Part shown: positions 16,968-53,761 of the stretch, in pieces
Position numbering within the stretch: the stretch's first letter is position 1
Layout of the letters: the number at the start of each line of letters is the position of its first letter
Assembly: GCF_020991085.1 (NCBI RefSeq)
Contig: NZ_CP087719.1
Span: forward strand, 744,001-808,000
DNA: 64,000 nucleotides
Source: Roseomonas sp. OT10
Lineage (GTDB): Bacteria > Pseudomonadota > Alphaproteobacteria > Acetobacterales > Acetobacteraceae
Direction of reading: 5' to 3'
Notes under the pieces: model-generated
The model's input: the letters and a program-made list of their open reading frames with translations, nothing else
Told to the model about the DNA's origin: nothing
The model's database searches: none
Made by a program: the position numbers and the translations under genes

Positions 16968-18497
16968 ATGGCGGAGCCGAAGCCCGAATCCATGCCCGCC
17001 CCGCCGCCGGGCGGGGGCCGCTCCTCGGCAGCCTTCAAGGGCGTCTTCTGGTCGGCCATCAACATCCTGGTGCCGACGGCGGCGAACCTGCTGGTCTTCG
17101 TCGTCACCTCCCGCCTGCTGACGCCGAACGACTTCGGCCAGGTCGCCCTGGCCGCGAGCCTGGCCGCCTTCGCCTCCGCCCTGGTGCCGGCCGGCTTCGG
17201 CGAGGCGCTGGTGCAGCGCAAGGACATGCGCCCGGAGCACATGGACGGCGTGTTCTGGCTCTGCCTGCTCTCCGGCCTCGTCACCTATGCGGCGCTCGCG
17301 TTTGCCTCGCCGGCCCTGGCGCGCTTCTTCGGCGCGCCCTCGCTCGCGCTGCTGCTGCCCGTGCTGGGGCTGCGCGTCATCTCCGACGTGGCCGCGGTGG
17401 TGCCGCAGGCGGTCGTGCTGCGCGCCCTGTCCTTCCACCTCGTCGCGCTGCGGACCATGGTCGCGACGCTGGTCGCCTCCATCGTCTCGGTGGCGCTGGT
17501 GCTGGCGGGTTTCGGGCTCTGGGCGCTGGTCTTCGCCCAACTCGCCAACTCCGTCGTGGCCACCATCAGCCTGTTCTGGACCGCCGGCTGGCGGCCGCGC
17601 TGGTCCTTCCGCGGCACCGCCCTGCGCGAGCTGACGGCCTATGGCGCCTATGCCTCCGGCACGCGGGCGCTGCAGTTCCTGATGAACCAGGCGGACCAGG
17701 CGGTGGTCGGCTTCGTGCTCGGCACGGTGCAGCTCGGCCTCTACAACTTCGCCCGCCGCGTCTTCGCCATCCTGAACGACGTCACCAGCGGCGCGCTGAG
17801 CGCCGTGGCACATCCGCTCTTCTCCGGCATCCAGGACGACCTGGACCGCGTGCGGCGCGGCTTCCTGACGGCGACGCTGCTGTCCAGCATCGTCGCCTTC
17901 CCCCTCTTCGTCGGGCTGGCGCTGGTGGCGGACCGTGCGGTGCCGCTGCTCTTCGGTGCGCAATGGGTCGAGGCGGTGTGGCCGATCCGCATCCTCTGCG
18001 GGCTCGGCATCATCACCTGCATCGGCATGCTGCAGGCGGGGCTGATCAACAGCCTGGGCCGCGCCAACTGGTGGTTCTGGTACCAGCTCTTCTCGGGCGT
18101 GACGAACTTCGCGATCGTCTTCGCCTTCGCCTCCCAGGGCACCACGGTCATGCTCGCCGTCATGGTGGCGAAGACCTACCTGTTCTGGCCCGTGCCCGTG
18201 GGCATGACGCTGCGCCTGCTGGCGATGCGGCCGGGCACCTATGCCACGCAGTTCGCCGCCCCGCTCGCCGCGTCCGCACTGATGGCCGCGGCGGTGCTGG
18301 CCGGGCGCGCGGCCCTGCCGGAATTGGACGCCCTGGCCGGCCTGGCCGTGGATGTGGCGCTCGGCGCACTCGTCTACGGGGCCGCGCTGGCGCTGCTCGC
18401 GCGGCGGCGCCTGCGTGACCTGGTGCAGGTGCTGCGCGGCGCAGCGAAGCGCAAGCGCCGGCCGGCCGAGGTTCCTGCGCCGGACGGCGTGGCCTGA
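16968..18497 (+). CDS. Polysaccharide flippase (Wzx/MATE-like, lipopolysaccharide biosynthesis)
   Basis: 509 residues with about 12 to 14 hydrophobic segments. The N-terminus reads FKGVFWSAINILVPTAANL and then RLLTPNDFGQVALA, the usual opening of the Polysacc_synt/Wzx family that moves lipid-linked oligosaccharides across the inner membrane. The ATG at 16968 begins just before the first membrane helix. It stands alone, about 43 kb from the surface-polysaccharide cluster that has its own flippase, so it likely serves another glycan. Its TGA stop lies within the first bases of the 425-bp repeat, which fills the gap to glpK. Confidence 0.88.
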   Translation: MAEPKPESMPAPPPGGGRSSAAFKGVFWSAINILVPTAANLLVFVVTSRLLTPNDFGQVALAASLAAFASALVPAGFGEALVQRKDMRPEHMDGVFWLCLLSGLVTYAALAFASPALARFFGAPSLALLLPVLGLRVISDVAAVVPQAVVLRALSFHLVALRTMVATLVASIVSVALVLAGFGLWALVFAQLANSVVATISLFWTAGWRPRWSFRGTALRELTAYGAYASGTRALQFLMNQADQAVVGFVLGTVQLGLYNFARRVFAILNDVTSGALSAVAHPLFSGIQDDLDRVRRGFLTATLLSSIVAFPLFVGLALVADRAVPLLFGAQWVEAVWPIRILCGLGIITCIGMLQAGLINSLGRANWWFWYQLFSGVTNFAIVFAFASQGTTVMLAVMVAKTYLFWPVPVGMTLRLLAMRPGTYATQFAAPLAASALMAAAVLAGRAALPELDALAGLAVDVALGALVYGAALALLARRRLRDLVQVLRGAAKRKRRPAEVPAPDGVA

Positions 18498-18916
18498 TCC
18501 CGACAGCGGGATGACCTGACCCGTCGTGCTGCGGTGTTCCGGTGGCGGACCGGGAGGGGACGCCGTCCCCTCCCAGACCCTCCCCTGCCGGGGCCACAAG
18601 CGGGCCCCGGACCCCGCTGGGAGTTGGCTCGGAGCGGTGGGCGTCAGCCTACGGGCTGAACCCTGACGGAACTCGGGCAGGCGGGACTCTGAAAAAGCTT
18701 CAGAAGGCGTCAGCGAGGACTGCGGCCTTACCCGCCGAGGAGCCAAGCTCCTCGGCGCCTCGACCCCGTATCCGGCTGTCCCGCGGCAGCGCTGATCGGG
18801 TCCAGGGCCCGCAGGGTCCTGGCGGAGTGGGGGTACGGGGGCGAGGCAGAGCCTTGCCCCCGGCCACGGGCCGCACCCCGCGCTGGCATGGACCGGCGCG
18901 TCCCGCCGTCTGTATG
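18494..18916 (+). repeat. Dispersed structured intergenic repeat, copy A
   Basis: 423 bp matching 53304-53729 in the same orientation. Two blocks are identical between the copies: 79 nt (18546-18624) and 52 nt (18798-18849). It contains hairpins at 18552-18574 (10 bp, loop GCC), 18588-18610 (8 bp), 18733-18757 (11 bp, loop CAA), 18802-18822 (8 bp with one G-T) and 18836-18862 (12 bp with one G-T). It occupies the whole space between the flippase (+) and glpK (-), and includes the flippase stop codon. Open frames inside it are not conserved as proteins in an obvious way, so it is treated as non-coding. Confidence 0.88.
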
Positions 18917-18929
18917 GGGCGGGCCGCCC

Positions 18930-53303: not shown

Positions 53304-53729
53304 CTGATCCCGACGGCGGGATGAACTGACCTGTCGCGCTGTGGTGTTCGGGCCGTCGGACCGGGAGGGGACGCCGTCCCCTCCCAGACCCTCCCCTGCC
53401 GGGGCCACAAGCGGGCCCCGGACCCCGCTGGGAGTCTGGTGCTTCCGGTAGGCGTCAGCCTGCGGGCTGCACCCTGACGGAGCTCGGACAGGCGGGACTC
53501 CGAAAAAAGCTTCAGAGGGCGTCAGCGCGGGCTGAGGCCGTACCCGCCGAGGAGCCATGCTCCTCGGCGTCTCGACCCCGTCGCAGGCTGTCCCGCGGCA
53601 GCACCCATTGGGTCCAGGGCCCGCAGGGTCCTGGCGGAGTGGGGGTACGGGGGCGAGGCAGCGCCTTGCCCCCGGGCCACGGGCCGCACCTCGAGTTGGC
53701 ACGGATCGAGGCATCGCGCCGCCTGCATG
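53304..53729 (+). repeat. Dispersed structured intergenic repeat, copy B
   Basis: 426 bp matching 18494-18916 in the same orientation. Identical blocks are 53357-53435 (79 nt) and 53610-53661 (52 nt). Conserved hairpins include 53363-53385 (10 bp), 53545-53569 (11 bp, loop CAT instead of CAA) and 53648-53674 (12 bp with one G-T, loop AGC instead of AGA). As with copy A it fills the gap between two convergent genes, parE (+) and a methyltransferase (-). About 90 bp of ordinary spacer precede it. Confidence 0.88.
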
Positions 53730-53761
53730 ATCCGGCCCGCGGCCGTGGGGAGGCGTGGTCC

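What the first reader, a model, noticed from the sequence alone, without database searches (positions are those of the whole stretch)
18494..18916. A ~425-bp structured repeat fills two convergent gene gaps
Seen: 18494-18916 and 53304-53729 align end to end in the same orientation, with identical blocks of 79 and 52 nt. Three hairpins have invariant stems (10, 11 and 12 bp) while two of their loops differ (CAA/CAT, AGA/AGC). Both copies sit between a plus-strand and a minus-strand gene, and copy A even supplies the stop codon of its left neighbour. Inference: a dispersed, selected nucleic-acid structure, possibly a bidirectional transcription end, RNA-stability element or nucleoid-protein site, rather than a protein gene.
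Basis: partly seen in the sequence, partly recalled or inferred. Interest (0 to 1): 0.72.

Follow-up and report, generated by a model that had tools for sequence, protein, structure and literature searches.

The report
Mobile palindromic repeat at gene ends
A roughly 420-letter non-coding DNA repeat, present in an estimated few hundred copies in this bacterium, looks like a jumping element that often lands on the stop signals of genes without breaking them and fills more than a third of the examined gaps between genes that face each other.

Summary
In detail: 18494-18916 and 53304-53729 align end to end with identical blocks of 79 and 52 nt. They are two of about 300 copies (72 in 1.14 Mb; total extrapolated). 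No Rfam family fits. Intact copies have inverted terminal repeats (TSATACSGACGGCGGGATG) and a 3-bp TSA target duplication. In 26 of 35 intact-end copies that triplet is a neighbour's stop codon, so insertion restores the stop. The body is unusual: two inverted two-hairpin units 'U' around a centre. Units were found in 14 of 60 genomes of the family and in 0 of 113 from other families, their stems covary strongly, and inverted neighbours always converge (96 pairs). Composites lie in 54 of 142 convergent gaps and 1 of 141 divergent ones. The terminal repeats are abundant only in this genome. No RAYT gene was found in 9 genomes, and no IS sharing the terminal repeats in 30 loci. Stem pairs are nearly all Watson-Crick, which favours a DNA palindrome over an RNA structure. 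Function at gene ends is inferred, not shown.

The parts
18495..18917 (+). Copy A, whole element with its flanking triplets
   Evidence: alignment; profile hit; ends
18495..18497 (+). Left target triplet TGA of copy A, which is also the stop codon of the flippase-like gene 16968-18497
18498..18512 (+). Left terminal inverted repeat of copy A
18549..18617 (+). Unit U1 of copy A (two hairpins X and Y joined by a C-rich linker)
   Evidence: covariance model R1, (L039:2549-2617)
18733..18757 (.). Central hairpin of copy A (loop CAA; the loop varies between copies)
18795..18863 (-). Unit U2 of copy A, inverted relative to U1
   Evidence: covariance model R1, (L039:2795-2863)
18900..18914 (-). Right terminal inverted repeat of copy A
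18915..18917 (.). Right target triplet of copy A (TGG; presumably decayed from TGA)
53305..53730 (+). Copy B, whole element with its flanking triplets
   Evidence: alignment; profile hit; ends
53305..53307 (+). Left target triplet TGA of copy B (92 nt after the parE stop, so not on a stop codon)
53360..53428 (+). Unit U1 of copy B
   Evidence: covariance model R1, (L040:17360-17428)
53545..53569 (.). Central hairpin of copy B (loop CAT)
53607..53675 (-). Unit U2 of copy B, inverted relative to U1
   Evidence: covariance model R1, (L040:17607-17675)
53728..53730 (.). Right target triplet TGA of copy B

Best explanation
The two copies belong to a large family of non-autonomous, MITE-like DNA elements. 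SHOWN by sequence: terminal inverted repeats, a 3-bp TNA-type target duplication, a weak preference for a target close to CTSAG, location between genes, and frequent exact coincidence of the duplicated triplet with stop codons. INFERRED: a DDE transposase acting in trans moved them. Because the duplicated triplet is TGA (or TCA, TTA), insertion into a TGA or TAA stop codon leaves a stop on the gene side, so stop codons are self-repairing safe harbours. The cargo is a composite that is probably older than the mobile form: two inverted copies of a two-hairpin unit U around a centre. Related composites without these terminal repeats fill convergent and tandem gaps in other genomes of the bacterial family. 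INFERRED function: a symmetric gene-end module that gives each of two facing genes the same palindromic block behind its stop codon and so insulates them from read-through, antisense RNA or colliding polymerases. How the stems stay matched is open; the near absence of G-U pairs suggests that selection or templated correction acts on DNA palindromes.
For: TIR pattern (up to 2 mismatches): 131 in the genome against 0 for the reversed control; a longer TIR pattern: 167 here (control 0) against 0-3 in each of 149 other family genomes, whose controls give 0-2, that is chance level. TSD: in 35 of 61 full copies with both ends recognisable, 22 have identical triplets (permutation mean 13.0, maximum 20 in 2000) and the middle base agrees in 30 (C/C 18, G/G 12) against G/C 2 and 3 others (Fisher on the C and G cells p 4e-7). 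In a second set of 35 intact-end copies (looser ends, chromosome stretches only) 26 sit exactly on a called stop codon; one has TTA at both ends. In tandem gaps 10 of 12 strong copies sit on the upstream gene's stop codon (counted from the list). Context: 53 of 74 elements convergent and 1 divergent, against 142 and 141 of 1015 adjacent pairs (p 4e-29, or 1e-16 by intergenic length; divergent p 1e-7). A resident 956-bp IS5-family IS shows TNA duplications in 12 of 12 copies (flanks read by eye; family). Composite architecture: neighbouring units 67 '+-', 1 '++', 1 '--', 0 '-+' here and 29 '+-', 2 '++', 0 '-+' in other genomes. Covariation. Units diverge far less than terminal repeats and linkers.
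Against: No autonomous partner was found: of 34 DDE_Tnp_1 matches 30 loci were inspected; one of them, L121, has two facing but weak sites (3 mismatches each, 2.7 kb apart, no TNA triplet), which I take as chance (11 such sites in the 30 loci against 3 for the reversed pattern); the resident IS5-type IS has different TIRs. No empty site was found for the TIR form: none of 58 gene pairs conserved with G012 or G003 carries an element here. The target consensus is weak: 12 of 26 stop-inserted copies have both C before and G after, against 22% of TGA stops in general (p 0.006). In a simple MITE the terminal repeats should be the best-kept part, but they diverge much more than U. Private mutations of single copies are about half as frequent in U (36 over 132 sites against 145 over 287), so most of the constraint lies in the lineages that spread. 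In both covariation tests the number of further pair types is not above shuffles (17 against 18.9; 26 against 26.0). No RNA data exist for any function.
Confidence: 0.6

Rival explanations
1. A selected RNA element (bidirectional terminator or mRNA 3'-end stabiliser) kept in each gene's 3' UTR; the mobile ends are incidental.
For: Sits behind stop codons and avoids divergent gaps; stems strongly covary; each facing gene reads a unit in the same orientation; canonical hairpin-plus-T terminators are rare in convergent gaps (5 of 54 with and 3 of 88 without a composite).
Against: Paired positions are almost purely Watson-Crick: in A2 425 WC, 9 GU, 17 AC, 17 other; in the best 88 of 142 rows of A3 1125 WC, 1 GU, 4 AC, 7 other; in all A3 rows G-U in 9 of 1571 cells. 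A3 is fitted to the model and leans towards pairs. An RNA stem should tolerate G-U. Presence of a composite does not go with absence of canonical terminators (p 0.26).
Confidence: 0.3
2. A giant REPIN/BIME: a selfish inverted doublet of palindromic units moved by a transposase that recognises the units; their conservation reflects replication of the element, not a host function.
For: Inverted doublet around a centre that in 10 of 29 composites of other genomes is a long inverted repeat, gene-end location, high copy number; REPINs and REPs show the same traits (PMC3116915 and PMC3733652, passages only). Units are better conserved than spacers.
Against: No Y1 transposase (PF01797): 0 of 9 genomes carrying the units, while the same search rings in 5 of 14 control genomes. 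Units are about 67 nt with two hairpins, not 20-40 bp. The form seen here has target duplications outside the units.
Confidence: 0.25
3. The matched stems are a mutational by-product: replication template switching at hairpins copies one arm onto the other, so palindromes perfect themselves without selection.
For: Nearly no G-U intermediates; 10 of 29 centres in other genomes are long inverted repeats whose sequences differ by eye; the central loop occurs as ATG in 30 and as its reverse complement CAT in 13 of 61 copies.
Against: In the young family mutated stem pairs are single-sided (21 broken, 7 G-U, 0 changed on both sides in the four stems). X-hairpin loops do not appear in both orientations in A2 (read by eye). 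Most centres of G096 and those of G003 and G004 are no more self-complementary than shuffles.
Confidence: 0.2
4. Stop-codon placement is purely the result of purging: any TSA-targeting element survives only outside genes.
For: Non-coding CTSAG sites are stop codons in 181 of 244 cases (74%), the same fraction as observed (26 of 35; p 0.58).
Against: If only TSA is required, 36% is expected (p 4e-6); only 12 of 26 stop insertions match the full CTSAG.
Confidence: 0.5

Closest known systems
MITEs of IS5-family (TNA-duplicating) insertion sequences
   Same: Short, non-coding, high-copy, terminal inverted repeats, 3-bp TNA duplication like the resident IS5-type IS
   Different: Terminal repeats match no IS found here; the body is a conserved palindromic composite better kept than the ends
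REPINs / BIMEs (REP doublets moved by RAYTs)
   Same: Inverted doublet of palindromic units around a centre that can form a hairpin; extragenic; gene ends
   Different: No RAYT gene in 9 genomes; larger two-hairpin units; target duplications; stems almost without G-U pairs
GTAG- and CGTC-tagged REPs (PMC3733652, passages read)
   Same: Convergent and unidirectional gaps preferred; GTAG REP ends often supply stop codons, as that paper says
   Different: There the stop is part of the repeat tag; here it is the duplicated target. That paper reports CGTC repeats missing in Acetobacteraceae

Membership tests
MITE | Terminal inverted repeats | tested here: met
MITE | Target-site duplication | tested here: met
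   22 of 35 identical triplets, middle base agrees in 30 of 35
MITE | No coding capacity | tested here: met
   at most 9 of 61 copies open in any one frame; 114 of 117 deletions out of frame
MITE | Shares terminal repeats with an autonomous element | tested here: inconclusive
   no convincing pair among 30 of 34 DDE_Tnp_1 loci; other transposase families not searched for this; partner may be lost
REPIN / BIME | Inverted doublet of palindromic units | tested here: met
   67 '+-', 1 '++', 1 '--', 0 '-+'; 29 '+-', 2 '++' elsewhere
REPIN / BIME | RAYT (Y1 transposase) in the genome | tested here: not met
   PF01797: 0 of 9 genomes, 5 of 14 controls ring
GTAG/CGTC-tagged REP | GTAG or CGTC tag beside a 20-40 bp palindrome | not tested
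   read by eye only: each unit hairpin is followed by ACCCC-like letters
Intrinsic terminator | GC-rich hairpin followed by a T-run | tested here: not met
   a hairpin-plus-TTTT site in only 5 of 54 convergent gaps that carry a composite
Any Rfam family | Score above gathering threshold | tested here: not met
   (window: one tRNA only); permissive scans of one copy of each kind gave only hits far below the families' gathering scores

The most novel reading that the evidence does not exclude
A mobile, self-repairing gene-end module: a transposable element whose target duplication turns stop codons into safe harbours and which carries a symmetric, DNA-level palindromic insulator, so that facing genes are fitted with the same 3' boundary across the genome. 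In this species an old, family-wide gap-filling composite acquired transposon ends and spread to more than a third of convergent gene pairs.
Probability: 0.3. Interest if true: 0.82.

Novelty: new variant of a known kind. Interest (0 to 1): 0.6.

Why it matters
If true, it shows how a selfish element can become the common 3' boundary of facing genes by using the stop codon itself as a target that heals on insertion, and it gives a system with hundreds of natural replicates for asking whether bacterial palindromic repeats act as RNA or as DNA. It also describes a repeat class with a patchy spread in one bacterial family whose carriers, as far as searched, lack the RAYT machinery usually invoked.

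Tried and rejected
Protein gene: rejected. Known RNA family: rejected. REP moved by a RAYT: rejected for lack of the gene. Resident IS5-type IS as the direct partner: same duplication but different terminal repeats; 14 stretches of other genomes around weak TIR matches gave no convincing pair (at 4 mismatches chance pairs abound). Copies on sequenced plasmids: no match for the whole element at 1e-5; for a TIR-less copy of contig C2 two short matches, 65 nt at 80% in a Pseudoroseomonas cervicalis plasmid and 39 nt in a Streptomyces plasmid. Outside the family the element's DNA gave two short matches, 44 nt in G036 and 27 nt in G042, which the unit model did not confirm. A close relative for an empty site of copy A: none. 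Orthologous gaps with own elements: 0 of 58. Literature: searches listed no paper that I recognised as describing this repeat; I saw listings and abstract openings only, in an open-access library, so this is no proof of absence. Dropped rows: hits of 80 bits or less before the context count; one short reference of 37 left out of alignment A2 (36 used); only the best 88 of 142 model matches were used and the best 104; 4 units inside called genes and 4 at contig edges are outside the 63 gaps, and one of those 63 is a G012 site held twice (L053 and L273), so 62 are distinct.

Full report
CHECK. The two stretches align end to end in the same orientation, with unbroken identical blocks of 79 and 52 nt; the sequence shows the three hairpins with identical stems and the two loop differences. 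Both lie between facing genes: flippase-like gene and glycerol kinase, parE and a methyltransferase-like gene. They are not alone. A search of the window's own genome scored 40 near-full copies at 87-100% identity; 386 candidates passed the first look and only 40 were scored. In 1.2 Mb that I read completely, a profile built from full copies finds 87 hits, which merge to 74 elements above 80 bits: 72 in 1.14 Mb of the main contig, 62 of them at 240 bits or more. Extrapolation gives about 300 copies, some 2-3% of the chromosome (inference).

ANATOMY OF ONE COPY. The outer edge is a triplet TSA followed by TACSGACGG..., inverted at the other end. In the 35 of 61 distinct full copies in which both ends are recognisable, the triplets are identical in 22 (permutation mean 13.0, maximum 20 of 2000) and the middle base agrees in 30: C with C 18 times, G with G 12 times, G with C twice, 3 others (p 4e-7 on the C and G cells). 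One copy has TTA at both ends. So the triplet is a directly repeated TNA, not part of the inverted repeat. Joining flanks of the 22 gives a target close to C-TSA-G, though only 12 of 26 stop-inserted copies match it fully, against 22% of TGA stops in general (p 0.006). In the window the triplets are 18495-18497 TGA and 18915-18917 TGG for copy A, and 53305-53307 and 53728-53730, both TGA, for copy B.

WHERE IT SITS. Of 74 elements 53 lie between convergent genes, 20 between tandem genes and 1 between divergent genes; adjacent pairs in the chromosome stretches number 142 convergent, 732 tandem and 141 divergent (p 4e-29 by pairs, 1e-16 by intergenic length; 2 of the 74 lie on contig C2, outside that background). 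Gene calls are from a script of my own, compared by eye with the ORFs of four window genes. Of 142 convergent gaps 54 hold a composite, of 732 tandem gaps 26, of 141 divergent gaps 1. In a second set of 35 intact-end copies (chromosome stretches, looser end match than) 26 have the triplet exactly on the stop codon of a neighbour, 13 on the left and 13 on the right. In tandem gaps 10 of 12 strong copies sit on the upstream gene's stop codon (counted from the list). Non-coding CTSAG sites are stop codons in 181 of 244 cases, so target choice plus purging could give the observed 74%; with TSA alone 36% would be expected. Either way a duplicated stop codon keeps the gene whole.

THE CARGO. The body holds two inverted copies of a unit U: hairpin X, a C-rich linker, hairpin Y, then ACCCC. 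A model of U (A2, 36 of 37 diverse references) pairs in 92.7% of cells, with 74 cells changed on both sides against 27 in shuffles and at most 11 when slid; the count of further pair types is not above shuffles. Among 151 units in this genome neighbours within 400 nt are 67 '+-', 1 '++', 1 '--' and 0 '-+'. A second, TIR-less kind of composite is also present (16 shown).

OTHER GENOMES. In the loci examined from other genomes neighbouring units are 29 '+-', 2 '++', 0 '-+', and 62 distinct gaps are 30 convergent, 30 tandem and 2 divergent (one search lists 63; one site was held twice). In 10 of 29 such composites the centre is a long inverted repeat (score 20-34; highest shuffle 16), with sequences that differ by eye; in G096, G003 and G004 it mostly is not. 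On alignment A3 all 13 pairs change on both sides in some sequence, 343 cells against 92 in shuffles (A3 is fitted to the model). The terminal repeats, in contrast, occur 167 times here and 0-3 times in each of 149 other family genomes, which is the level of the reversed control. Among 179 orthologous adjacent gene pairs of G003, G004 and G012, 3 have units in both species, 2 in one only, with gaps of 15 and 10 nt in the other, and 174 in neither. So TIR-less composites are gained or lost as blocks and can persist.

HOW IT EVOLVES. Across 61 copies four stems differ from the consensus at 0.3-1.4% of positions; windows inside the units at 0.4-2% (up to 7% where a window crosses a unit's edge); all other windows at 5-29%, the highest being the end windows, which include the target triplet and a few flanking bases. 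Variant states shared by two or more copies number 14 in the 132 unit sites and 286 in the other 287; private ones 36 and 145 (p 5e-4). The constraint is therefore strong in lineages that spread and about twofold in single copies. Changed stem pairs in this young family are single-sided (21 broken, 7 G-U, none two-sided). Over longer times pairs are almost only Watson-Crick (A2: 425 WC, 9 GU, 17 AC, 17 other; best 88 of 142 rows of A3: 1125 WC, 1 GU, 4 AC, 7 other). I read this as a DNA-level palindrome, by selection or by templated correction. Di Nocera and colleagues used frequent G-T pairs as a sign of RNA function in REPs (PMC3733652, passages); here the sign points the other way.

MOBILISER. 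The duplication is that of the resident 956-bp IS (NCBIfam IS5 family; 83-87% identical over its length to the 15 listed of 47 plasmid records, some named ISEc61), which shows TNA direct repeats in 12 of 12 copies. Its terminal repeats (GAGCCTGAT...) are different. Of 34 DDE_Tnp_1 matches, 30 loci show no convincing pair of the element's repeats; L121 has two weak facing sites without a TNA triplet. No Y1 transposase exists in 9 genomes with units. The mobiliser is unknown or lost. That IS1031-type IS5 elements duplicate TNA is recalled, not from a call.

VERDICT. A MITE-like mobile form, abundant only in this genome among those searched, of an older palindromic composite of the family. Movement by a trans-acting transposase is likely. 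A role as a two-sided gene boundary is plausible and untested. The literature searches (listings of open-access papers) showed no description of it.

Noticed in passing
L273:16343-17850 (G012): A composite in an orthologous convergent gap appears to be split by an insertion of about 1.2 kb; the orthologous G004 copy is unbroken. The insert was not translated or searched.
   Followed up: partly
central hairpin, window 18733-18757 and 53545-53569, and 61 copies: The central hairpin loop occurs as ATG (30), CAT (13) and CAA (12) among 61 copies; ATG and CAT are reverse complements, as if the loop flips.
   Followed up: partly
L136, just after the parE stop (G007): In G007 the parE stop TGA is followed directly by a TIR-like GCGGACGG stretch and, by eye, a U-like inverted unit: perhaps another mobile form at a stop codon in the same genus.
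   Followed up: no
contig C2 of the own genome (L103-L111): Nine of twelve near-identical copies of an IS5-family element lie on the 286-kb second contig, three on the main contig.
   Followed up: no
convergent gaps of the own genome: Hairpin-plus-TTTT terminators are rare: 8 of 142 convergent gaps by my script, so this genome may rely on other termination.
   Followed up: no
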